Positions 240-10,206 of a stretch of DNA of 34,055 bases are shown one piece after another. The notes under the pieces were generated by a model that ran no database searches, had not been told where the DNA came from, and saw nothing but the letters and a program-made list of their open reading frames with translations. Numbering within the stretch: position 1 is the stretch's first letter; each line of letters opens with the position of its first letter. Where the stretch lies: positions 1-34,055 of the forward strand of contig CANQBA010000044.1 of assembly GCA_947589545.1 (NCBI GenBank). Direction: 5' to 3'. Made by a program: the position numbers and the translations under genes. The DNA comes from an uncultured Oscillospiraceae bacterium (lineage in GTDB: Bacteria > Bacillota > Clostridia > Oscillospirales > Oscillospiraceae).

Positions 240-1268
240 CTATTTTTCGCAGAACCGTACATATTCGGTAAATTTCAGCGTTATGCCAAGGTTACGGGCA
301 AATTCAGCGATACCGCTGTCGTCCTCATCGGTCGTCCATGTATCCGTTACCATGCTGTCAATTTTACGGAAACCTGCCAAAACAGTGTCCTCGTAGAGAT
401 CGTTGAAAATAAACGGATACTCTTTCAATAGAGCCTGCTGCGCATACTCCGGCAAGGCGGCCAGTGTCTCTTTTGTAACGAAGCCGTTCAGACTGACGAA
501 TATACCGCCGGGCTTTAATACCCGATAGCATTCTCGCAGAGCGGTGCTTTGATCGCCGATGCAGTTAATAATTCCACCGTGGTCAGCGATCACGTCCACC
601 GTGCAGCTTTTAAATGGTATATCGCAGAAATCCAATGCCGCGTAGTACAAAAAAGGAGAGTCCAGTTCTTGATCCAGAAGGTGCTTCCACTCCTCCACTA
701 CAGTATGGGACAGGTCGCTGACGATGATTTGCGCGGACGGATCGGCTTGGAGGATAAACGGCATATATCCGCCGCCGGGTCCTGAGCCAATGTCGAGAAT
801 AACACCGCCGTGCTCCGCAATTTTCCGGCCAATTCTTAAATTGGTTGGCCGGCCCCGTTCACCGATAACATTTCTGCCATACTTGCTGTCCGCCCAGCCG
901 CCAGGTTGGCCCCATGCGTCGTGCCAGTTTCGCGCGATCCAGCCTTCTGTCCGCATATCCCGCTCCCACTGCACACGCTCCAAGTCTGTTTCAGCCGGCA
1001 CAAAATAGACAACGCCGTCCTTTTCCTGAAAGGAACGGCTTGCGATACGAGCCAAAAGGCCGGTGCTCTCCAAAAGCTCATTCACGGAAACGCCGTACAG
1101 CTTGGACAGTTCAAGCAGCAGTTCCACGTCCGGAAGCGCTGCCGCCGTCTCCCATTTGCTGACCGCTTGGGCGCTAACGCCCAGTTTTTCTGCCAGTTCT
1201 GCTTGAGAAAGTCCCAATCTACGCCGGAAATCCGCAGTCCGTTTTCCAAAATGCCGTTTATTTATCAT
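240..1268 (-). CDS. XRE-family HTH / class I SAM methyltransferase fusion
   Basis: A 342-residue protein with two parts. Residues ~8-65 form a Cro/CI-type helix-turn-helix (LGLSQAELAEKLGVS, then AVSKWETAAALP). Residues ~155-275 form a Rossmann methyltransferase domain: motif I is ILDIGSGPGGG, with a CYRVLKPGG post-motif typical of small-molecule SAM methyltransferases. The substrate is unknown. The ATG is preceded by AAAGGGG at about 10 nt. It is the only gene in the element that splits the recombinase, so it behaves as cargo. The HTH may regulate its own transcription, or may sense stress and couple it to methylation; neither is shown. An antibiotic-modifying role, as carried by many Tn4451-like elements, is possible but unsupported by any recognisable resistance motif. 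Confidence 0.8.
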   Translation of the reverse strand: MINKRHFGKRTADFRRRLGLSQAELAEKLGVSAQAVSKWETAAALPDVELLLELSKLYGVSVNELLESTGLLARIASRSFQEKDGVVYFVPAETDLERVQWERDMRTEGWIARNWHDAWGQPGGWADSKYGRNVIGERGRPTNLRIGRKIAEHGGVILDIGSGPGGGYMPFILQADPSAQIIVSDLSHTVVEEWKHLLDQELDSPFLYYAALDFCDIPFKSCTVDVIADHGGIINCIGDQSTALRECYRVLKPGGIFVSLNGFVTKETLAALPEYAQQALLKEYPFIFNDLYEDTVLAGFRKIDSMVTDTWTTDEDDSGIAEFARNLGITLKFTEYVRFCEK

Positions 1269-1435
1269 GCCATTCGCCCCTTTCCTGTAGTGTGATTATC
1301 ATATCATGTCCGTGAAAGAAAAGAAAGCGACACATATTCAATCATGTAAAAAAGAAACTCAACCGCCGGTTGTCACATATCCATAGAAGAATAGCTTATA
1401 GAGGAAAGTCTCAAGTTGCCTATATATGTTTTCCA

Positions 1436-1476
1436 AAGTGCGCACTTACTCACCACCGGCAGGGCCGGCGGTGGTA
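1436..1476 (-). other. IncQ/MobQ-like origin of transfer
   Basis: On the minus strand an imperfect inverted repeat (ACCGCCGGC, CCT, GCCGGTGGT) is followed after GAG by TAAGTGCGCACT. The TAAGTGCGC core, placed just after an inverted repeat, is the layout of RSF1010/R1162-type oriT sites nicked by MobA-family relaxases. No complete relaxase is present in the window; only a relaxase fragment survives at 33.0-33.3 kb. The site probably lets the element be mobilised in trans. A search against known oriT collections would confirm or refute it. Confidence 0.55.
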
Positions 1477-1613
1477 CTGCCTGGCGGCAGTCGTGCGCTC
1501 TCTGAGGGGGACGCTCCAGCGGGCCTTGTACCTGCTGGCAGCGCCAAGAGGGGCTAAAGCTCCTCCCTTTTCAGAATGTGAACTTTTGGGTGAAAGACCC
1601 CTTGACAAATCGC

Positions 1614-1712
1614 TTAGTGATTCTGGATGCTGTTGGAGTCGTCCTCTTTATTTTGCATGTCCTCCTGGTTCAAGCGTCCATAGAGGATGGTGTATTTTTC
1701 TTGGCCAGCCAT
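1614..1712 (-). pseudogene. Large serine recombinase, N-terminal fragment (Ser to Asn)
   Basis: ATG at 1712 (minus) with GGAGG upstream encodes MAGQEKYTILYGRL followed by NQEDMQ and DDSNSIQN, then a stop produced by the inserted DNA. This is the N-terminus of a TnpX/TndX-like large serine recombinase. The second copy, at 33313, reads YGRLSQED where this reads YGRLNQED. The serine of this motif is the expected catalytic nucleophile, so this copy would be inactive even if rejoined. It is also about four codons shorter than the right-hand copy before EDDSNSIQN. Its downstream half is at 1-75. Confidence 0.75.
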
Positions 1713-1741
1713 TTTTCCTCCTGTTAGTGACAGTGCGCAGC

Positions 1742-1775
1742 CAATTTTATCATTTTTTTAAAAATGATAAAATTG
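1742..1775. promoter_or_regulatory. Perfect 34-bp palindrome upstream of fic-hsd operon
   Basis: CAATTTTATCATTTTT (1742-1757), two T's, then its exact reverse complement (1760-1775). It ends 4 bp before the proposed -35 box of the operon. A perfect 16-bp arm at this position suggests an operator for a dimeric DNA-binding protein; the winged-helix C-terminus of the Fic protein is one candidate. A transcription terminator for something upstream is the alternative, but no gene reads into it from the left. Confidence 0.6.
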
Positions 1776-1779
1776 ACTA

Positions 1780-1808
1780 TTGCTTCTATGACCTAATTGC
1801 GATATAAT
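1780..1808 (+). promoter_or_regulatory. Promoter of fic-hsdMS operon
   Basis: TTGCTT, 17-bp spacer, TATAAT (1803-1808), about 40 bp before the Fic start codon. The -10 box is perfect; the -35 box matches only in TTG. TTGACT at 1773 is an alternative -35, but its spacing of 24 is too long. Confidence 0.5.
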
Positions 1809-1849
1809 AAGTTTAGTTTCGGTACATGTTTCCTGCAATGAGGTGTTTT

Positions 1850-2911
1850 ATGCGACAATACGACTATACAGCTGTTTACACCAGTCTCCTCACTCCTGAT
1901 ATTGTGGGGATGGTTGGGCAGATTCATGAGTACAAGGGAGAGCAGAACCTTTTTATCGAGGCGAAGGCAGATACGCTTTCGCAGTTACTGGAAATCGCGA
2001 AAATCCAGAGCACCGAGGCTTCCAACCGTATGGAGGGCATCTATACCTCCAACAAGCGCCTGGAGCAGTTAGTCAGAGAAAAGACTATGCCAAGAACGAG
2101 AAACGAGCAGGAGATCGCCGGATACAGAGACGTGCTGTCAACGATACACGAAAGCCATGATTTTATTCCCCCGAAGCCGTCGATTATTCTTCAGCTCCAC
2201 CGGGACCTCTACCGTTTCAGCGGCACATCAGTTGGCGGCAACTATAGAAGCACTGACAATATCATTGAAGAAACCGATGCCCAAGGAAACAAGTTCGTTC
2301 GTTTTCAGCCGGTGCCCGCATGGGAAACGCCAGAAGCCGTAGAGCGGGCCTGCCGGGCGTATAACAGCGCTCTTGACTGCGGAGAATACGACCCCCTACT
2401 GCTGATGCCCATTTTTATTCTTGATTTTCTCTGCATCCACCCATTCAACAACGGAAATGGCAGAATGAGCCGGCTTCTGACACTCCTGCTGCTCTATCGC
2501 GCGGGGTATATTGTGGGCAAATACATCAGTATTGAAAAGCTCATTGAAAAGACCAAGGAAACCTACTACGACACCCTGCAGGAGAGCTCTATTGGCTGGC
2601 ACGAGGGCGCAAACACTTACGCGCCCTTTACCCGCTATCTGCTTGGCGTGATCCTCGCCGCGTACCGTGAATTTTCAAGCCGGGTGCAGGCGCTGATCAC
2701 CGGCGGTCTCAGCAAGCCGGAGCGGGTACGGGAGATCATCCGAGGCACCCTTGGTAAGATCACCAAGGCGGAGCTTATGCGCCAGTGTCCCGACATCAGT
2801 CAGGTCACGGTACAGCGGGCCCTGAACGACATGGTCAAAAGCGGCGAGATCATAAAGCTCAGCGGCGGACGCTACACATCTTATATCTGGAACAGGGAGA
2901 GAGAGAAATGA
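1850..2911 (+). CDS. fic: Fic/DOC family protein with C-terminal winged helix
   Basis: A 353-residue Fic protein, a family that usually transfers AMP or another nucleotide moiety to protein hydroxyls. H197 starts the motif HPFNNGNGRMSR; the family consensus is HPFx(D/E)GNGRxxR, so the metal-binding acidic residue is Asn here. Residues 58-63 read SNRMEG, fitting the (S/T)xxxE(G/N) inhibitory motif of N-terminally autoinhibited (class II) Fic proteins. The last ~60 residues (TKAELMRQCP, SQVTVQRALNDM) look like a winged helix-turn-helix. I chose the ATG at 1850 because GAGGTG lies 4 nt upstream; ATGs at 1826 and 1838 are in frame but lack such a site. The stop overlaps the hsdM start (ATGA), implying co-translation with the modification genes. 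It may modify a protein of this system or regulate the operon; neither is shown. Confidence 0.9.
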   Translation: MRQYDYTAVYTSLLTPDIVGMVGQIHEYKGEQNLFIEAKADTLSQLLEIAKIQSTEASNRMEGIYTSNKRLEQLVREKTMPRTRNEQEIAGYRDVLSTIHESHDFIPPKPSIILQLHRDLYRFSGTSVGGNYRSTDNIIEETDAQGNKFVRFQPVPAWETPEAVERACRAYNSALDCGEYDPLLLMPIFILDFLCIHPFNNGNGRMSRLLTLLLLYRAGYIVGKYISIEKLIEKTKETYYDTLQESSIGWHEGANTYAPFTRYLLGVILAAYREFSSRVQALITGGLSKPERVREIIRGTLGKITKAELMRQCPDISQVTVQRALNDMVKSGEIIKLSGGRYTSYIWNREREK

Positions 2912-4404
2912 TCACAGGGGAACTTAAAAACAAAATCGACGGGCTATGGGACATATTCGCGGCGGGGGGATTAGTGAACCCCTTGGATGTCATTGAGCAG
3001 ATTACGTATCTCATGTTTATTCACGATCTGGATGAGTCTGACGACAGAAAAAGCCGGGAGAGCGTCATGCTGGGTCTGCCCTTTGAGAGTATCTTCGCCG
3101 AGGAAGTGCAGATCGGTGACCGCAAGGTTCCGGGCCGCCAGCTCAAATGGTCTGTATTTCGGGATTTCCCCGCGGGGCAGATGTACAGCATCATGCAGGA
3201 GTGGGTTTTTCCCTTTATCAAAAATCTCCACGCGGACAAGAACAGCGCCTATTCCAAGTACATGGGGGATGCCATTTTCAAGCTCCCCACGCCGCTTGTG
3301 CTGTCAAAGGTTGTGGATTGCCTCGACGGGATCTACAGCCAGATGGCGCAGATCCAGGACACGGATATCCGCGGCGATGTATATGAGTATCTTCTAAGCA
3401 AGATCTCCCAGTCCGGCCTCAACGGTCAATTCCGCACACCCCGGCACATCATCCGCTTGATGGTGGAACTTACGGCACCGACGCCTGACGATGTGATCTG
3501 CGACCCCGCTTGCGGCACATCGGGCTTTCTCATCTCCGCCGGGCAGTATCTGAAGGAGAACTATAAGGCCGAGGTGATGTTCAACAGGGAAAAGCGGGAG
3601 CACTATATGAACCGTATGTTCACCGGCTACGACATGGATCGGACCATGCTTCGCATCGGCGCCATGAACATGATGACCCACGGTGTGGACAACCCCTTCA
3701 TCGAGTACCGGGACAGTCTCAGCGAGCAGAACGCCGATAAGGACAAATATACCCTCATCCTGGCCAATCCGCCTTTCAAGGGCAGCCTTGACGCGGACAC
3801 GGTGTCCCCAGACCTTTTGAAGGTCTGCAAAACGAAGAAGACGGAGCTGCTGTTTTTGGCCCTGTTTCTGCGGATGCTCAAAATCGGCGGGCGGTGCGCC
3901 TGCATCGTACCGGACGGGGTGCTGTTCGGCTCCTCCGCCGCCCACAAGGCCATTCGCCGGGAGCTCATCGACAACAACCGCCTGGAGGCCGTGATCTCCA
4001 TGCCCTCCGGCGTCTTCAAGCCCTACGCAGGAGTGTCCACCGGCGTCCTGGTCTTCACCAAGACCGGTTACGGCGGCACCGACGACGTCTGGTTCTACGA
4101 CATGCGCGCCGACGGCTTTTCCCTGGACGACAAGCGCACACCTATAGCGGAGAACGACATTCCCGACATCGTGTCCCGTTTTCATGATCTGGAGGCCGAA
4201 AGATCCCGCTCCCGCACGGAGCAGTCCTTTCTGGTGCCAAAGGATGAGATTATTGACAACGGGTATGATTTGAGCATCAATAAGTACAAAAAGACCGAGT
4301 ATGTTCCCGTGGAGTACCCGCCCACAAGTGAGATCATCGCGGAGTTGAAGGCGCTGGAGGCGGAGATACAGAGGGGAATCGAGGAGTTGGAGGGAATGGT
4401 GTGA
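2908..4404 (+). CDS. hsdM: Type I restriction-modification DNA methyltransferase subunit
   Basis: A 498-residue HsdM, the N6-adenine methyltransferase subunit that works as M2S and, with HsdR, as the restriction complex. An N-terminal HsdM helical domain (residues ~1-140) precedes the catalytic domain with SAM-binding motif DPACGTSG from D199 and catalytic motif NPPF from N287. The C-terminus (KALEAEIQRGIEEL) is a coiled-coil segment of the kind that contacts HsdS. The ATG at 2908 overlaps the Fic stop by 4 bp and follows GGGAGAGAGAG. A longer upstream in-frame reading exists but is translated Fic sequence in another frame. Both catalytic motifs are intact, so the subunit should be active. 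Confidence 0.95.
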   Translation: MITGELKNKIDGLWDIFAAGGLVNPLDVIEQITYLMFIHDLDESDDRKSRESVMLGLPFESIFAEEVQIGDRKVPGRQLKWSVFRDFPAGQMYSIMQEWVFPFIKNLHADKNSAYSKYMGDAIFKLPTPLVLSKVVDCLDGIYSQMAQIQDTDIRGDVYEYLLSKISQSGLNGQFRTPRHIIRLMVELTAPTPDDVICDPACGTSGFLISAGQYLKENYKAEVMFNREKREHYMNRMFTGYDMDRTMLRIGAMNMMTHGVDNPFIEYRDSLSEQNADKDKYTLILANPPFKGSLDADTVSPDLLKVCKTKKTELLFLALFLRMLKIGGRCACIVPDGVLFGSSAAHKAIRRELIDNNRLEAVISMPSGVFKPYAGVSTGVLVFTKTGYGGTDDVWFYDMRADGFSLDDKRTPIAENDIPDIVSRFHDLEAERSRSRTEQSFLVPKDEIIDNGYDLSINKYKKTEYVPVEYPPTSEIIAELKALEAEIQRGIEELEGMV

Positions 4405-5477
4405 TGGCGAAGTTTGCAGACATCTTTGAAGATGTCACAAAAGAAGGGTGCAAGATTCCACAAGAGGACTACTTGGACGAGGGACTCTATCCCATTATAG
4501 ATCAAGGCCAAAAACAAATAGCGGGTTTTGCAAACAACCCGAACGGACTTTATTATAATGTCCCTGCTATTATTTTTGGAGATCATACAAGAATCATCAA
4601 GTATGTTGATACACCTTGCTTTTTAGGTGCGGATGGAGTTAAGCTCTTACGCGCGAAAATTCCTAACGCAAATTACAAGTTTCTATATTATGCCTTGTCT
4701 AACGTGAAAATTCCCAACACCGGGTATAACCGACACTTCAAATGGCTGAAAGAAGCGGATATACAGTTACTTTCGGAAGAACAACAACGGAAAATCGTTG
4801 CGGTTCTGGATCATGTAAATGATTTTATTTCCCTCCGCAAACAGCAGCTTGCCAAGCTGGACGAGCTGGTTAAGGCACGGTTTGTGGAGATGTTTGGGGA
4901 TCTCAAATCTAATCCCCTGCACTGGCCATTAACGCCTTTTACTGCTTTTGCGGAAATTGATGGGAACATGACAACGAACTTTGAAAAATATGCAGATTAT
5001 CCTCACATTGGAATCGACAGTATTGAGAAAGAAACCGGGGTATTGCACGGCTATCGCACGGTAAAACAAGACATGGTAATAAGCGGAAAATACATTTTCA
5101 CGCCGGAACACATTATTTATAGTAAGATTCGTCCTAACTTGAACAAGGTTGCTCTACCAACATTTTCAGGCTTGTGTTCAGCCGATGCATACCCAATATT
5201 GGTTAAAAGGGAAAAGTGTAGCCGTGTCTTTTTAGCATTTGTAATGCGGTCAAAGCTTTTTTTAGATTATATACTTCAATTTAGCTCCAGAACAAATTTA
5301 CCAAAAGTGAACCGAAAAGAGATAATGGGCTTTAAAATGCCTTTGCCGCCCTTTGACTTGCAAAAAAAATTTGAGGCATATTTTACACAAGTTGAAAAAC
5401 GAAAGCTGACAATCCAGCAGGGATTGGATAAACTGGAAATGTTGAAAAAGGCTCTGATGCAGGAGTATTTTGGGTGA
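4404..5477 (+). CDS. hsdS: Type I restriction-modification specificity subunit
   Basis: A 357-residue HsdS with two target-recognition domains, each followed by a helical spacer: first TRD ~1-130, spacer EEQQRKIVAVLDHVND, then LRKQQLAKLDELVKARF and the conserved FVEMFGDLKSNP; second TRD ~175-315; C-terminal coiled coil ending LKKALMQEYFG. It sets the bipartite DNA sequence that HsdM methylates and HsdR protects. The ATG at 4404 shares its A with the hsdM stop TGA; a GTG at 4401 is the alternative start. It is a little short for the family. The DNA from here to ~6.9 kb is visibly richer in A+T than hsdM and hsdR, consistent with exchange of the specificity cassette. The recognition site cannot be read from sequence. 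Confidence 0.93.
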   Translation: MAKFADIFEDVTKEGCKIPQEDYLDEGLYPIIDQGQKQIAGFANNPNGLYYNVPAIIFGDHTRIIKYVDTPCFLGADGVKLLRAKIPNANYKFLYYALSNVKIPNTGYNRHFKWLKEADIQLLSEEQQRKIVAVLDHVNDFISLRKQQLAKLDELVKARFVEMFGDLKSNPLHWPLTPFTAFAEIDGNMTTNFEKYADYPHIGIDSIEKETGVLHGYRTVKQDMVISGKYIFTPEHIIYSKIRPNLNKVALPTFSGLCSADAYPILVKREKCSRVFLAFVMRSKLFLDYILQFSSRTNLPKVNRKEIMGFKMPLPPFDLQKKFEAYFTQVEKRKLTIQQGLDKLEMLKKALMQEYFG

Positions 5478-5486
5478 GGTATACGT

Positions 5487-6044
5487 ATGGAATTTCTAAA
5501 AGATGTTGTTTGCTTCTTTAATGAGCCGATTTGGGGGACGGTAGGTAATTTATTTACCGCCATTGGTTTTATTAGTACTGTTGTTGCGATTATTCGCTTT
5601 TTTCATAATAGAAAAATCTCAAATTGGCAAGAAAATGTCTCCATAAAGGACTATCCACCGGATTATGATGTAGAATCTACTGAAAAAAGTCCAATTTATT
5701 CAAAGCTTTGGAATGACCCGCCAAATCCCTTTGAAACTGTCATAGTATTTAAGCCGGTCGGGACGGTAATATCCAAACTAAAAGTGATAGAGCTTGATAT
5801 AAATGAAAAACCCGTAAAAACAATTGAGATATTCAAAAATATTACTCCAGTTGATTCAATATGTTTCCGTATTGAGCGGGCAGAAAATATAAGTTCATAC
5901 AAGATAAGATGGTATTCGGAATTTGGAGAATACAGCGAACACTATTTTACTACAAATAGAAGAAATGGAAATAGCACTGTGGAGGGATCTTGCTACAAGG
6001 CAACTTTTCTCTCGACAATCCGTCGCATTTTTGGATTTAGATAA
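5487..6044 (+). CDS. Unknown single-pass membrane protein within hsd operon
   Basis: A 185-residue protein I do not recognise. Residues ~10-32 (TVGNLFTAIGFISTVVAIIRFF) form one membrane segment followed by HNRK, predicting a short N-terminus outside and a mostly beta-rich cytoplasmic domain (for example KPVGTVISKLKVIELDI). The ATG lies 9 bp after the hsdS stop with GAGGT upstream, so it is read as part of the operon. The gene is A+T-rich. A broken copy of an hsdS 3' end follows it directly (6066-6165), so the gene sits between two hsdS 3' ends and probably arrived by recombination at that sequence. A membrane partner for the HEPN-like protein encoded next is a conceivable role, but it is only suggested by position. 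Confidence 0.7.
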   Translation: MEFLKDVVCFFNEPIWGTVGNLFTAIGFISTVVAIIRFFHNRKISNWQENVSIKDYPPDYDVESTEKSPIYSKLWNDPPNPFETVIVFKPVGTVISKLKVIELDINEKPVKTIEIFKNITPVDSICFRIERAENISSYKIRWYSEFGEYSEHYFTTNRRNGNSTVEGSCYKATFLSTIRRIFGFR

Positions 6045-6065
6045 GAAAAAAGTGTATTTACGCTT

Positions 6066-6165
6066 GCAACCAAATCGAAAAAACAATTGGAAATCCAACG
6101 GCGATTGGATACACTGGAAAAGCTGAAAAGCGTTTATGCTAGAGTATTTTGAAGGTGGTATATAA
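6066..6165 (+). pseudogene. Remnant of an hsdS 3' end (coiled coil), frameshifted
   Basis: From 6066 one frame reads ATKSKKQLEIQRRLDTLEKLK; after a +1 shift at about 6129 it continues KAFMLEYFEGG and stops at 6163-6165. The intact hsdS ends LDKLEMLKKALMQEYFG, so this is the C-terminal coiled coil of a second hsdS. It matches at DNA level too (GAGTATTTTG near the end in both). It is too short to function. It shows that a second specificity gene, or a duplicated end, once stood here. Confidence 0.7.
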
Positions 6166-6166
6166 T

Positions 6167-6925
6167 TTGGACATGGTTCCTGATCGTGATTTTTTCGAGG
6201 AAGAATCTTCAGATATTCGATCCATTACAGAAGTAGACTTAAATGATCCCAACTTTATTAAAGTTGCAGAAAATTTGGGGAGAATGGGAATTATCTTTCC
6301 TCATCATATAAAAGTAGAAGATTTATGTAATACTTTATATTTTTATTACATTATGACAAACGATGATGGGCTTTTTAGAAAATGTCAGGAAGTAGACTTA
6401 GATTTATCAAAGGATGAATTTTTTGAATTAGCTAAAAAATACTTATTTCTAAACCTTTATGAAGATTTCAATCAAAGATACTATAAAGAAACAAGAGACA
6501 GAATAGAAACATTTTTAAATAATCATTATGCCCCCATGGGGTGCTTTTTCTCTCAATGTTGTAATGCCCTTGAGAATGAGCTGCTTTATCCGTGTATATG
6601 CGGACTGACGACTATTTTGGAAGGGATTCTTGGAAAATACACAGGATTAAGCAAAACGAGTATGCATGTTCTCTTTGAAAAAATAAAATCACAGCTTAAT
6701 GACGGTGCGAGTTACATAATTGCAATAAATATTCAAAGCTTCATAGATGCAATAACCTCAAAATCAGACTTTTCAAATCAAAATGAACCCGTCCAACTTA
6801 ACAGGCATTGGCTTCTTCACGGTAGAAGTAATCGAGATATAACAAAATTGGATTGCATAAGTATCATTTGCGCTGTTGATGCAATAATTGAAATTATACA
6901 AAGTATATCTGGTGATACCCCATGA
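6167..6925 (+). CDS. HEPN-like RxxxxH protein encoded between hsdS and hsdR
   Basis: A helix-rich protein of about 252 residues with no signal peptide or clear membrane segment. Near its C-terminus it reads LNRHWLLHGRSNRD: an Arg, four residues, then His, which is the Rx4-6H signature of HEPN ribonucleases. A predicted helix (SIICAVDAIIEII) follows, as in HEPN folds. The last codons overlap the hsdR start (ATGA), so the two are translationally coupled. I favour the TTG at 6167, 8 nt after GGTGG; an ATG at 6173 and a TTG at 6149 are alternatives. By position it resembles prrC, the anticodon-nuclease gene between hsdS and hsdR in E. coli, but it lacks PrrC's ATPase domain. An RNase that fires when restriction fails is my inference. 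The family as a whole I do not recognise. Confidence 0.7.
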   Translation: MDMVPDRDFFEEESSDIRSITEVDLNDPNFIKVAENLGRMGIIFPHHIKVEDLCNTLYFYYIMTNDDGLFRKCQEVDLDLSKDEFFELAKKYLFLNLYEDFNQRYYKETRDRIETFLNNHYAPMGCFFSQCCNALENELLYPCICGLTTILEGILGKYTGLSKTSMHVLFEKIKSQLNDGASYIIAINIQSFIDAITSKSDFSNQNEPVQLNRHWLLHGRSNRDITKLDCISIICAVDAIIEIIQSISGDTP

Positions 6926-9900
6926 CTAATTTTTCTTTCCTCCAAAAAGAAAAGGATTTTACCCCCTTCTCCGCCCCCGCCATCGCCGCCGAGCAGATCC
7001 TCCACATCGACCCCGCCGCGTGCATCTTAAACTGCCGGCGTTCCTTAGAGTCCGCCGTCAAGTGGATGTACTCGGTGGACTGCGCGCTGAAGGTAGGTGG
7101 GGACGAGCGATTGGCGGCGCTGATGGACTGCGAGGATTTTCGGGACATCGTGGGGCCGGACATCTGGCGGAGAATGGACCTTGTGCGCAAGCTGGGCAAT
7201 CAGGCGGCGCACTCCGGGCGGAAGTTGACGGAGGAGCAGGCCGTCGCATGTCTTGAAAACCTCTACATATTCCTGGACTTTGTGGCCTACTGCTACGGGG
7301 AGAACTATGAGGAGGGGCACTTTGACCGGAATCTTATTGATGTCACCGAAGAAGCTCCCACGCCGGAGCCTTCCACAGATGCTGAACTTGCAAAGCTCAT
7401 AGAGGAGAACCGGGCGCTGCGGGAGGAGCTGACCCGCCGAAGGGAGAATCAGCAATCAACTTACAGCCCCAAACCGCCGGAACCCAGTGAATATGAGACG
7501 CGGAAGATTTACATAGACACCATGCTCATGGATGTGGGCTGGACCGAGGGGCGGGACTGGCTTAACGAGGTAAAGCTGCCCGGTATGCCCAACAAGTCCG
7601 AGGTGGGCTACGCCGACTATGTACTTTACGACGACGCCCTCCGGCCTCTGGCGGTGATCGAGGCGAAAAGGACCTGTGTGGACGTGGTGAAGGGCCGCCA
7701 GCAGGCAAAGCTCTACGCGGATATTCTGGAAAAGCAGTGCGGCCGCCGCCCCGTCATCTTCCTGACCAACGGCTTTGAGACGCGCATCGACGATGGGCAG
7801 TACCCGGAGCGCCGGGTCGCCGCTATATGGTCCAAACGGGATCTGGAGAAGCTTTTTAATCTGCGCTCCATGCGCCTGAGCCTGAAAAACGCCCAAATCG
7901 ACCATATGATCGCCGGGCGGTACTATCAGGAGGCGGCCATCCGGGCGGTGTGCGATACATTAGAGGTTAAAAACCGCCGGAAAGCCCTCCTGGTCATGGC
8001 CACCGGCTCCGGAAAAACCAGGACGGTCATCGCGCTGTGCAAGGTGCTTTTGGAGCACGGCTGGGTGCGGAACATCCTCTTCCTGGCAGACAGGAACGCA
8101 CTTGTTACCCAGGCAAAAAGGGCGTTTGTGAACCTTATGCCCGATCTGTCGTTGACGAATCTGTGTGAAGAGAAGGATAACTATACCGCCCACTGCGTCT
8201 TCTCCACCTATCAGACCATGATGAACTGCATCGACGAGGCCCGGGACGAGGAGGGGAAGCTCTTTACCTGCGGGCATTTTGACCTTGTCATCTGTGACGA
8301 GGCCCACCGGTCGATTTACAATAAATACAGGGATATTTTCACCTATTTTGACGCTCCGCTCGTCGGACTCACGGCCACGCCTAAGGATGAAATCGAGAAG
8401 AATACCTATGAGATCTTCGAGCTCCCCGCCGGCACGCCTACATACGGCTACGAGCTGGCCCAGGCGGTGCGGGATGGGTATCTGGTGGACTTCCTGTCTG
8501 TGGAGACGAAGCTGAAATTTATTGAGGAGGGCATCGTTTACGACGAGCTTTCCGAGGAGGACAAAGCCGCCTATGAGGACACCTTCAGCCAAGACGGTGA
8601 CATGCCTGACCGCATCGGCTCCGCAGCTCTGAACGAGTGGGTCTTCAACGAGGACACCATCCGCCAGGTTTTGCACGTTCTTATGACCGAGGGCCTGCGG
8701 GTGGATTACGGGCAGAAGATTGGAAAAACCATCATTTTCGCCAAGAACCACAACCACGCGGAAAGGATACTGGATGTCTTCGGGAAGGAATATCCGCACA
8801 TGACAGGTCAGGCCAAGGTCATCGATAACCACATAAACTACGCGCAGAGCCTTATCGACGAGTTCTCTGATCCGAAAAAGCCGCTTCAAATCGCCATATC
8901 GGTGGACATGCTGGACACCGGCATCGACGTGCCGGAGGTGCTGAACCTGGTGTTTTTCAAGAAGGTCCTGAGTCGGGCGAAATTCTGGCAGATGATCGGC
9001 AGAGGCACGCGCCTGTGTCCGGGGCTCCTGGACGGCGTGGACAAGAGCAAATTCTACATCTTTGATTTCTGCGGGAATTTTGAGTTTTTCCGCATGTATA
9101 AAGGAAAGCCCTCGGCCAATCAGATGGCGGTGCAGGGCGCGATTTTCAATTTGAAAGCTCAAATTGTCTCCAAACTCCAGGATCTGGCCTATCAGACGCC
9201 GGAGCTGATAGAGTTCCGCAAATTGCTGGTTGACGACATGGTGCGCAAGACGAGGGAACTCAATCGGGAAAATTTCGCCGTGAAGCAGCACCTGAAATAT
9301 GTGGAACGGTATTCCGAGCCTGAGAGCTATACCACAGTGACCTATGAGGACACATTGATCATAGCCGGGGAGCTGTCACCGCTCATAGTGCCTGACCGGG
9401 ACGACCCAAAGGCCATGCGTTTTGATGCCCTGATGTACGGCATTGAGCTTGCGTATCTTGCCGGAAAAAAATATACCCGCGCGAGGAACGACCTTTTGCG
9501 AAAGGTGGAGGCGATCGCCGGCGTGGCGAACATCCCGGCCATTATGGCGCAGAGCGAGCTTATTGATAAGCTTCTGCATACAAGCTATCTGGACAATGCC
9601 GGCATCAACGAGTTTGAGGAAATCCGCGAGAGACTGCGGGATCTGATCCGTTACATTCCTGCGGACCTTGTGCGGTACATCACAAATTTTGACGATGAGA
9701 TCCTGTCGGTCGATTGGAAGGAAGCGGAGCTGGACAGCGACGACCTGGCGGGCTACAGGGCGCGGGCGGAGTTCTATGTCCGGGAGCATCAAAACGAGGC
9801 CGTTATCGCCAAGCTCCGGGGAAATGTCCCGCTGAAAAGGGCGGACATCGACGAGCTGGAGTCTATCCTCTGGAGCCAGGTTGGGACGCGGGAGGAATAC

Positions 9901-10206
9901 GAGGCCGTCTATGGGGCCAAGCCCCTGGGTGACTTCGTCCGGGAGCTCACGGGCCTTGACATGAACGCCGCAAAGGAGGCGTTCGCTGCTTACCTTAACG
10001 ACACAAGGCTGGACGCCCGGCAGATCTATTTTGTCAATCAGATCGTTGAGTACATCGTTCATAACGGCGTTCTCCGGGACTACACCGTTTTCCAGGCGCC
10101 GCCCTTCACAGATCGCGGCAGCATTGTAGAGGTCTTCACCGATATGACCGTTTGGCTGGGAATAAAGTCAGTCATTGACCAGATAAACGCCAACGCCGCG
10201 GCATAA
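6922..10206 (+). CDS. hsdR: Type I restriction endonuclease subunit R
   Basis: A 1094-residue HsdR, the ATP-driven translocase and nuclease. The order is: N-terminal DUF4145-like region (RRSLESAVKWMY, then LGNQAAHSG; residues ~10-130); a coiled segment (~155-175); PD-(D/E)XK nuclease with D231 and E247-A-K249; SF2 helicase with Walker A ATGSGKT (from ~360) and Walker B DEAH at 459-462 (CDEAHRSIYNKY); helicase motif VI-like QMIGRGTRL; and an EcoEI-type C-terminal domain. All the catalytic motifs I looked for are intact. The start ATG overlaps the stop of the HEPN-like gene by 4 bp. GC content rises back here to the hsdM level, so the A+T-rich block is confined to hsdS and the two accessory genes. 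No clear terminator is visible in the ~130 bp after the stop. Confidence 0.95.
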   Translation: MTNFSFLQKEKDFTPFSAPAIAAEQILHIDPAACILNCRRSLESAVKWMYSVDCALKVGGDERLAALMDCEDFRDIVGPDIWRRMDLVRKLGNQAAHSGRKLTEEQAVACLENLYIFLDFVAYCYGENYEEGHFDRNLIDVTEEAPTPEPSTDAELAKLIEENRALREELTRRRENQQSTYSPKPPEPSEYETRKIYIDTMLMDVGWTEGRDWLNEVKLPGMPNKSEVGYADYVLYDDALRPLAVIEAKRTCVDVVKGRQQAKLYADILEKQCGRRPVIFLTNGFETRIDDGQYPERRVAAIWSKRDLEKLFNLRSMRLSLKNAQIDHMIAGRYYQEAAIRAVCDTLEVKNRRKALLVMATGSGKTRTVIALCKVLLEHGWVRNILFLADRNALVTQAKRAFVNLMPDLSLTNLCEEKDNYTAHCVFSTYQTMMNCIDEARDEEGKLFTCGHFDLVICDEAHRSIYNKYRDIFTYFDAPLVGLTATPKDEIEKNTYEIFELPAGTPTYGYELAQAVRDGYLVDFLSVETKLKFIEEGIVYDELSEEDKAAYEDTFSQDGDMPDRIGSAALNEWVFNEDTIRQVLHVLMTEGLRVDYGQKIGKTIIFAKNHNHAERILDVFGKEYPHMTGQAKVIDNHINYAQSLIDEFSDPKKPLQIAISVDMLDTGIDVPEVLNLVFFKKVLSRAKFWQMIGRGTRLCPGLLDGVDKSKFYIFDFCGNFEFFRMYKGKPSANQMAVQGAIFNLKAQIVSKLQDLAYQTPELIEFRKLLVDDMVRKTRELNRENFAVKQHLKYVERYSEPESYTTVTYEDTLIIAGELSPLIVPDRDDPKAMRFDALMYGIELAYLAGKKYTRARNDLLRKVEAIAGVANIPAIMAQSELIDKLLHTSYLDNAGINEFEEIRERLRDLIRYIPADLVRYITNFDDEILSVDWKEAELDSDDLAGYRARAEFYVREHQNEAVIAKLRGNVPLKRADIDELESILWSQVGTREEYEAVYGAKPLGDFVRELTGLDMNAAKEAFAAYLNDTRLDARQIYFVNQIVEYIVHNGVLRDYTVFQAPPFTDRGSIVEVFTDMTVWLGIKSVIDQINANAAA

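What the first reader, a model, noticed from the sequence alone, without database searches (positions are those of the whole stretch)
1742..10206. Type I restriction operon that embeds a Fic protein, a membrane protein and a HEPN-like protein
The order is fic-hsdM-hsdS-TM protein-HEPN-like-hsdR on one strand. There are ATGA overlaps at fic/hsdM and HEPN/hsdR, a shared-base junction at hsdM/hsdS and a 9-bp gap after hsdS. Overlaps imply co-translation, so the extra proteins are made in step with the restriction subunits. In E. coli EcoprrI, the anticodon nuclease PrrC occupies the hsdS-hsdR slot and kills the cell when a phage disables restriction. Here that slot holds a different, much smaller candidate RNase plus a membrane protein. 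The combination is not one I know as a described system.
Basis: partly seen in the sequence, partly recalled or inferred. Interest (0 to 1): 0.78.

Follow-up and report, generated by a model that had tools for sequence, protein, structure and literature searches.

The report
Restriction operon with swappable cargo bay
A bacterial DNA-restriction operon carries extra defence-like genes, here a small membrane protein and a likely RNA-cutting toxin, in a gap whose contents vary widely among relatives and which shows scars of how such genes get stacked.

Summary
The operon is real and laid out as described: fic-hsdM-hsdS-TM protein-HEPN-hsdR, with the stated overlaps. It is a Type I restriction-modification operon. 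In relatives the hsdS-hsdR gap is a cargo bay: 45 of 56 complete loci hold 1-6 ORFs there, with widely varying contents. The C-terminal half of the 252-residue protein models as a HEPN fold with an RX4H motif. None of its 8 relatives was seen in an hsd bay, but two adjoin other restriction systems. The membrane protein's only relative found sits in the same bay without this HEPN gene. So the two genes look like separate cassettes. Between them lies a decayed copy of the hsdS 3' end. Nine of 45 occupied bays carry such scars (hsdS tails, hsdR heads) and two show hsdR-hsdS joints, so bays probably grow by fusing. Fic may also regulate the operon: a palindrome precedes fic in 13 of 19 loci. Embedding, and a restriction/HEPN/Doc triad, were already in print (PMC3710099, PMC11411939, PMC12255303). 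The scars, cargo families and palindrome I did not find in print. Function is inferred throughout.

The parts
1742..1775 (.). Perfect palindrome (two 16-bp arms, 2-bp centre), candidate operator just upstream of the -35 box
   Evidence: no other exact match of its core pattern in the 3.83-Mb genome; palindrome score >=10 in 13 of 19 fic-bearing loci vs 3 of 30 fic-less loci
1780..1808 (+). Sigma-70-like promoter TTGCTT-17-TATAAT, read by eye (the -35 matches only 3 of 6 consensus bases)
   Evidence: Sequence; hexamers also in L035/L036; not listed, which asks for 4 of 6 in each hexamer
1850..2911 (+). fic: SoFic-like Fic protein with inhibitory motif SNRMEG and a likely C-terminal DNA-binding wHTH
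   Evidence: (wHTH hits are below Pfam cut-offs)
2908..4404 (+). hsdM: Type I DNA methyltransferase
   Evidence: Pfam N6_Mtase 3.1e-63
4404..5477 (+). hsdS: Type I specificity subunit
   Evidence: Pfam Methylase_S; PADLOC Specificity_I
5407..6045 (+). Block shared with L035 (79.7% nt): hsdS 3' tail through the TM-gene stop codon
5487..6044 (+). Embedded gene 1: 185-aa protein, one N-terminal TM helix and a C-terminal domain (beta-rich only at low confidence)
   Evidence: no Pfam, NCBIfam, PADLOC or PHROG family at a useful E-value
6068..6165 (+). Scar: decayed copy of the hsdS 3' end, frameshifted
   Evidence: nhmmer E=2.6e-11; leave-one-out E=1.9e-11
6167..6925 (+). Embedded gene 2: 252-aa protein with predicted HEPN fold, motif NRHWLLHG (RX4H), candidate RNase
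6922..10206 (+). hsdR: EcoAI/EcoEI-type restriction subunit with N-terminal DUF4145 domain

Best explanation
This is a Type I restriction-modification operon whose hsdS-hsdR gap works as an exchangeable cargo bay for second-line defence genes. The window's bay holds two unrelated cassettes stacked by recombination: an hsdS-tail + membrane-protein cassette, then a HEPN gene still preceded by the worn 3' end of another hsdS. Shown: operon structure, conserved flanks with variable hsdS and cargo, the scars, the RX4H motif; the HEPN fold is predicted. Inferred: the bay grows when two Type I loci recombine between the 5' end of one hsdR and the 3' end of another hsdS (or when a tandem pair collapses), so both cargoes end up between one hsdS and one hsdR. 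Inferred: the HEPN protein is an RNase made with the restriction subunits, kept silent in healthy cells and released when a phage blocks or overloads restriction, stopping translation (PrrC-like logic without PrrC's ATPase). Inferred: the Fic protein also binds the palindrome at the promoter through its C-terminal wHTH and sets expression of the whole operon, as CccR does at its own promoter. The membrane protein is a separate module of unknown trigger, probably a membrane-anchored sensor or effector with its domain in the cytoplasm.
Confidence: 0.6

Rival explanations
1. The TM protein and the HEPN protein are one two-gene defence system (membrane sensor or anchor plus RNase) inserted into the operon.
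For: They are adjacent, on one strand, with similarly low GC (0.349 and 0.324). L035, the one locus with a TM-protein relative, also has a HEPN-like ORF, of another kind, in its hsdM-hsdS gap.
Against: A decayed hsdS tail separates them. L035 keeps the TM gene (71-74% identical) in the same slot without this HEPN gene; a different 175-aa ORF follows. None of 8 HEPN relatives has the TM gene nearby, judged by blastp against P0004.
Confidence: 0.12
2. The 6068-6165 relic is what is left of a second, silent hsdS gene (as in phase-variable Type I loci), unrelated to cargo stacking.
For: Extra hsdS genes do occur: L037 has a second full hsdS and L065 a partial one, each next to an ORF that looks like a tyrosine recombinase by eye. 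Duplicated hsdS loci are known (PMC7394358, search listing only).
Against: Other bays carry hsdR heads, which a silent hsdS does not explain, and L055 and L063 show hsdR joined to an hsdS tail. None of the six genes of the window's operon matches a recombinase.
Confidence: 0.25
3. The embedded genes are passengers: the slot is merely a permissive, well-expressed insertion site and nothing links the HEPN protein to restriction.
For: Cargo varies widely and includes proteins with no obvious tie to restriction (HAD hydrolase in L054); 24 of 40 scanned proteins have no Pfam match above cut-off. The HEPN relatives are scattered.
Against: Several cargoes are recognised abortive-infection or defence families; two HEPN relatives are immediate neighbours of restriction genes of other types; cargo is usually closely spaced to hsdR (37 of 45).
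Confidence: 0.3
4. Fic is a toxin arm only (protein AMPylation) and the palindrome is a terminator or the site of another regulator.
For: PMC3710099 section 10 proposes a toxin role for DOC proteins beside restriction + HEPN genes. The palindrome is very long and perfect in some loci (25-bp arms in L035), more than a usual operator needs. 6 of 19 fic loci score below 10.
Against: It lies upstream of the -35 box; of 30 fic-less hsdM genes only 3 have a palindrome this strong and none of those has the core; it is kept in L125 where no hsdM lies within 1.5 kb; its ATCAT/ATGAT core resembles the CccR sites AGATAATCAT/ATGATAATCT.
Confidence: 0.35

Closest known systems
EcoprrI with PrrC (Type IC operon, anticodon nuclease)
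   Same: A HEPN nuclease encoded inside a Type I operon (PMC3710099 section 10; PMC12707154 passages)
   Different: PrrC has an N-terminal ABC ATPase; the window's 252-aa protein matches no ATPase model at a useful E-value. Here an unrelated membrane protein and fic are also in the operon
R-M + RloC-like HEPN + DOC toxin neighbourhoods (Anantharaman et al. 2013, PMC3710099)
   Same: The same triad idea: restriction, HEPN RNase, Fic/Doc AMPylator
   Different: There the HEPN is fused to an ABC ATPase; here it is a stand-alone HEPN-like protein in the hsdS-hsdR bay, and Fic is a SoFic-like protein
TgvAB in the Vibrio cholerae VPI-2 Type I cluster (PMC11411939, passages)
   Same: Accessory defence pair embedded in a Type I cluster; the authors liken its position to RloF between hsdR and hsdS
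   Different: Type IV GmrSD-like nucleases, tested; unrelated to the cargo here
RptR-RMS-DarTG2 island of EPEC (PMC12255303, passages)
   Same: Toxin pair between hsdS and hsdR; upstream repressor binding palindromes in the operon promoter; authors call the site a potential recombination hotspot
   Different: RptR is a 9-kDa helical repressor; here the candidate regulator is Fic. No scars mentioned in the passages read
Campylobacter jejuni rlo/mlo genes (Miller et al. 2005, seen only as cited in PMC5183652 and PMC11411939)
   Same: Variable ORFs between hsdR and hsdS and between hsdS and hsdM
   Different: Not compared gene by gene; the paper itself was not read
CccR of Yersinia pseudotuberculosis (PMC9755527, passages; PDB 7XUX)
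   Same: Fic domain + C-terminal HTH with an inhibitory motif; represses its own promoter at an inverted repeat; P0001 matches 7xux_A (E=9.4e-7); like the window's Fic it has N at the D/E position of the motif
   Different: Secreted effector, described beside T6SS effector genes; 26-bp spacer between half-sites

Membership tests
Type I restriction-modification operon | HsdM methyltransferase, HsdS specificity and HsdR helicase-nuclease genes together | tested here: met
   Pfam and PADLOC matches
HEPN superfamily | HEPN helical fold | tested here: met
HEPN superfamily | R-x(4-6)-H active-site motif | tested here: met
   NRHWLLHG; NR-x4-H in 9 of 9 aligned members; the motif definition is recalled
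HEPN superfamily | Match to a curated HEPN sequence model | tested here: inconclusive
   No Pfam, NCBIfam or PADLOC HEPN hit for P0005 up to E=1; divergent families can be missed
HEPN superfamily | RNase activity | not testable with these tools
   Needs a bench assay
PrrC anticodon nuclease | N-terminal ABC-type ATPase fused to the HEPN domain | tested here: not met
   252 aa, no ATPase match of use; not filed as PrrC
PrrC anticodon nuclease | Held silent by the Type I enzyme and released by anti-restriction | not testable with these tools
   Inferred only
HEPN/MNT toxin-antitoxin | Adjacent minimal nucleotidyltransferase antitoxin | tested here: not met
   Neighbours are the TM gene and hsdR; neither matches a nucleotidyltransferase. 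A HEPN/MNT-type pair sits in the L044 slot
Fic proteins with N-terminal inhibitory helix (SoFic-like) | (S/T)xxxE(G/N) inhibitory motif and Fic domain | tested here: met
   SNRMEG; Pfam Fic 2.2e-13, PADLOC SoFic 3.5e-35; the motif's meaning is recalled and matches CccR's S59ARIEG
Fic proteins with N-terminal inhibitory helix (SoFic-like) | HPFx[D/E]GN[G/K]R catalytic motif | tested here: inconclusive
   Window has HPFNNGNGR; all 19 other Fic proteins have D there, 17 of them with the whole motif intact. CccR also has N and is active
Defence genes embedded between hsdS and hsdR | Gene(s) between hsdS and hsdR on the same strand, closely spaced | tested here: met
   9-bp gap and ATGA overlap; also 45 of 56 complete slots occupied
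Defence genes embedded between hsdS and hsdR | Anti-phage activity of the cargo | not testable with these tools
   Needs phage challenge

The most novel reading that the evidence does not exclude
Type I restriction operons of these Oscillospiraceae-like bacteria are self-assembling defence platforms. Cargo cassettes travel with an hsdS 3' tail, bays fuse by hsdR-5' x hsdS-3' recombination (leaving readable scars and chimeric joints), and a Fic-wHTH protein at the head of many of them is the operon's own repressor, so one regulator controls whatever cargo is loaded. The window is one such fused bay, with a HEPN family that also partners Type IIG and Type II restriction systems.
Probability: 0.45. 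Interest if true: 0.72.

Novelty: new variant of a known kind. Interest (0 to 1): 0.5.

Why it matters
That defence genes sit inside restriction operons is known; how they get there and accumulate is, as far as I found, not worked out. The hsdS-tail and hsdR-head scars turn that question into something that can be read from sequence and counted, and they warn that neighbouring genes in such a bay need not form one system. The Fic-palindrome link offers a testable idea of how a variable payload is kept under one switch. The HEPN family and the membrane protein matched no named family here and are candidates for second-line phage defence.

Tried and rejected
Searches that found nothing: P0005 and P0004 in plasmids and viral contigs; P0005 in genome contigs. 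Profile A4 against PDB sequences gave only marginal unrelated hits (best E 0.012). The model of the TM protein is too poor to interpret (pLDDT 41) and its Foldseek rows (assorted beta-rich chains, best E 4.2e-3) are not used as evidence. A shared family for the small TM cargo proteins was considered (24 of 95 cargo ORFs have a hydropathy-predicted TM, one of them the HEPN protein's last helix, so the count is rough); blastp groups the window's protein only with L035's, so it was dropped. The idea that the window's Fic is dead (HPFNNGNGR) was dropped because CccR also has N there and is toxic.

Rows dropped before counts: HsdR places not fetched were 5 of 36 non-own places, 3 of 32 and 2 of 18 (partial or more divergent); places already held were not fetched twice. 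Of 68 loci, 12 lacked a full hsdS or the hsdR start and were left out of slot counts. Two of 7 non-own HEPN hits (G473, G597; stops inside, E near 1e-3) were not followed. Only 30 of 51 Fic places became loci, and some of these 30 are the same loci as among the 19 (L119 is the window). Pfam scans covered 40 proteins of the first set (72 listed; one of the 40 is from an hsdM-hsdS gap), none of the 35 later loci; PADLOC covered 10 of these. L065 and L037 tail hits (second hsdS ORFs) were not counted as scars; weak hits (E 0.0098-0.25) in L115, L052, L063, L051, L042, L038, L037 and L055 were not counted either. L063's tail is E=0.07 by profile and was accepted only as part of the joint read. The fic count of 19 leaves out L051 (fic cut by the contig end) and G043, where another ORF lies between fic and hsdM.
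Full report
Check of the observation. The six genes, their order, the ATGA overlaps, the one-base hsdM/hsdS junction and the 9-bp gap are all in the sequence. Pfam identifies Fic, HsdM, HsdS and an EcoEI/EcoAI-type HsdR with an N-terminal DUF4145 domain. The two embedded proteins match no Pfam, NCBIfam or PADLOC family at a useful level; phrog_30981, of unknown function, is a weak hit (E=0.0024) to the HEPN protein. The window is contig C44 of a 3.83-Mb assembly. The nearest named relative of the operon is L035, whose record is an uncultured Oscillospiraceae bacterium, with 95% (HsdM) and 94% (HsdR) protein identity. That the window comes from the same group is inferred.

The slot is a cargo bay. 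I collected 68 loci around HsdR homologues (window, L035, and 66 regions fetched from genomes found; regions). In 56 the first full hsdS and the hsdR start are both present. Of these 56, 45 slots are at least 300 nt long (469-4370, median 1431) and hold 95 ORFs of 70 aa or more; 36 of 39 are occupied when HsdR is at least 55% identical to the window's, 9 of 17 otherwise. Slot DNA is poorer in GC than hsdM in 44 of 44 cases. The last cargo ORF ends within 40 nt of hsdR in 37 of 45; the 4-bp overlap, by the starts used, occurs in 3 (window, L055, L057). Contents vary: by blastp 40 of the 95 ORFs fall into 17 groups of 2-4 shared between loci, and 55 have no counterpart. Among 40 proteins scanned, 16 pass a Pfam cut-off: AbiH (3), SIR2_2, FRG, a nucleotidyltransferase and NTase_sub_bind (HEPN/MNT) pair, SLFN_AlbA_2, AAA_21, DUF4238, DUF2971 (2), DUF2806, DUF6161, a trypsin-like protease and a HAD hydrolase. 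PADLOC, run on 10, adds candidate-system models PDC-S25, PDC-S15, PDC-S31 and PDC-S47.

Flanks stay, hsdS and cargo change. Between the window and L035 or L036 the DNA is about 90% identical from about 1725-1738 to about 4408 (promoter, fic, hsdM) and from 6919-6962 through hsdR; in between only the central hsdS stretch (4827-4900), the hsdS tail and, in L035, the TM gene match. The L035 match runs from about 5407, inside the hsdS tail, to 6045, the TM-gene stop, at 79.7%, although the two HsdS proteins are only 33% identical. So the TM gene travels, or is kept, with an hsdS tail, independently of the target-recognition domains.

Scars. Between the TM gene and the HEPN gene lies a frameshifted copy of the hsdS 3' end: 6092-6129 is 84% and 6126-6162 is 73% identical to 5411-5448 and 5447-5483 (alignment). 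Profiles of the hsdS tail and hsdR head find, in the 75,400 nt of 45 occupied slots at E<1e-7 (second hsdS ORFs of L037 and L065 left out), hsdS tails in the window, L040, L055 and L093, and hsdR heads in L042, L055, L063, L087, L093, L110 and L114: 9 of 45 slots. The same profiles give nothing below E=0.06 in 186,921 nt upstream of hsdM, nothing below 0.7 in reversed slots, and nothing below 0.03 in 11,441 nt between hsdM and hsdS. All eleven hits persist when the query locus is left out of the model. Each of the 7 heads lies where an hsdR gene would start, 12-23 nt after the preceding stop (for L114, whose hit begins inside the head model, this is extrapolated); random placement within -20 to 60 nt of a stop has a product of per-locus chances of 4e-7. 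In 5 of 7 the head is closest to the same locus's own hsdR (75.8-96.2% identity), in L042 to another locus, and in L114 no own match was found; of the 4 tails, L040 and L093 are closest to their own hsdS, the window's to L035 and L036 (about 79% against 74% to its own), and L055's to other loci. Scars occur in 9 of 28 slots with two or more ORFs and 0 of 17 with one (Fisher p=0.009); counting only ORFs of at least 120 aa, 8 of 23 against 1 of 22 (p=0.02). Two scar fragments are themselves ORFs (81 and 88 aa in L093 and L055), which inflates the first count.

Joints. In L063 the hsdR head runs ...MCAVDCQ and continues as KALMQGYF, the hsdS tail (own HsdR: MCAVGCRKALE; own HsdS: LKKALMQEYF), a crossover at a shared KAL stretch. 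In L055 the head ends near ...STEGF and is followed by FVDQSDKSK... and, in another frame, LFDSMMQQHFR, an hsdS tail. These are the joints expected when one locus's hsdR 5' end is joined to another's hsdS 3' end, either by unequal exchange or by collapse of a tandem pair; I cannot tell which. In the window only the hsdS-tail half is left, so its fusion is inferred by analogy.

The membrane protein. One N-terminal TM helix (about residues 18-36 by hydropathy) is followed by basic residues, which suggests a cytoplasmic C-terminal domain (inference). Its model is unreliable (pLDDT 41). The one relative found, in L035, sits in the same slot at the same 9-bp spacing, followed by an unrelated 175-aa ORF instead of the HEPN gene; L035 does carry a different HEPN-like ORF (165 aa, Pfam HEPN just below cut-off) between hsdM and hsdS.

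Fic and the promoter. fic lies directly upstream of hsdM (within 400 nt) in 19 of 44 loci with at least 1.1 kb of upstream sequence, 19 of 30 when HsdR is at least 55% identical. The protein is close to 8uqu_A over residues 30-353 (E=2.5e-85) and matches CccR, 7xux_A (9.4e-7), and weakly SoFic structures. Window 1742-1775 is a perfect palindrome 4 nt upstream of a TTGCTT-17-TATAAT promoter (sequence). Palindromes scoring 10 or more occur upstream of fic in 13 of 19 loci and upstream of hsdM in 3 of 30 fic-less loci (Mann-Whitney p=1e-6). The 3 have unrelated sequences; of the 13, 9 have the core ATCATT/AATGAT and 2 more GTCATT/AATGAC, and the arms change symmetrically. Among 30 Fic-homologue loci (overlapping the 19), 9 of 15 with hsdM and 9 of 15 without have such a score; one without (L125) has the same core, several others share TTCCCTTA/TAAGGGAA or close forms, and some look like terminators. 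This fits, but does not prove, that the palindrome belongs to Fic. CccR, a Fic-HTH protein with the same kind of inhibitory motif, represses its own promoter at AGATAATCAT-N26-ATGATAATCT (PMC9755527, passages read). PMC2686095 (passages) already suggested that HTH domains fused to Fic may regulate fic expression.

Comparison with what is known. Passages of PMC12255303 describe DarTG2 between hsdS and hsdR and call the site a potential recombination hotspot. Passages of PMC11411939 describe TgvAB in a Type I cluster, recall RloF between hsdR and hsdS, and cite Payne et al. 2024. A passage of PMC5183652 defines rlo and mlo genes. Section 10 of PMC3710099, read whole, says that at least 16 HEPN clades are linked to restriction systems, that RloC-like proteins with restriction genes and a DOC toxin form a three-level defence, and that the RNase is released when restriction is neutralised. 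So the kind is known; the HEPN family, the TM protein, the fused bay and the Fic palindrome are the new parts as far as I found. My literature searches for scars (20 of 25 papers shown; 20 of 71 shown) listed no title or abstract opening on hsdS or hsdR remnants between cargo genes; bioRxiv is not held and those papers were not read for this.

Verdict.

Noticed in passing
window 2450-2452 (within fic): The Fic motif reads HPFNNGNGR; all 19 other Fic proteins have D at this position. L037 (GNER) and L048 (RPF) are altered elsewhere in the motif. CccR also has N, so loss of activity is not implied.
   Followed up: partly
L093 7602-9022: Order hsdS - hsdR head (96% to own hsdR) - two ORFs - hsdS tail (89% to own hsdS) - hsdR: looks like a recent insertion or fusion with both scars still fresh.
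   Followed up: partly
L037 5860-7963 and L065 6767-8390: An ORF that looks like a tyrosine recombinase (by eye) followed by a second full or partial hsdS inside the slot, resembling phase-variable hsdS loci.
   Followed up: no
L035 4020-4517, L046 5760-6272, L040 3587-4096 (reverse strand of the locus as fetched), L062 6546-7067 (likewise): Small ORFs in the hsdM-hsdS gap; the L035 one gives Pfam HEPN (E=0.00027, just under cut-off) and the other three look alike by eye, so a second HEPN-type slot may exist there. Coordinates are those, in hsdR orientation.
   Followed up: no
L036 4555-5802, L087 6905-8161, L089 7752-9017, L103 7746-9002: A recurrent 415-421-aa cargo protein in four different bays, with no Pfam match for the L036 copy.
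   Followed up: no
L079 5946-8843: A HEPN-family gene beside HaeIII-type methylase and endonuclease genes: the same HEPN family with a Type II system.
   Followed up: partly
window 10918-34055: The rest of the window looks like ordinary chromosome at 52-69% GC (WG-repeat/SLH protein, FemAB, GH32 enzyme, PfkB kinase, LacI regulator).
   Followed up: no
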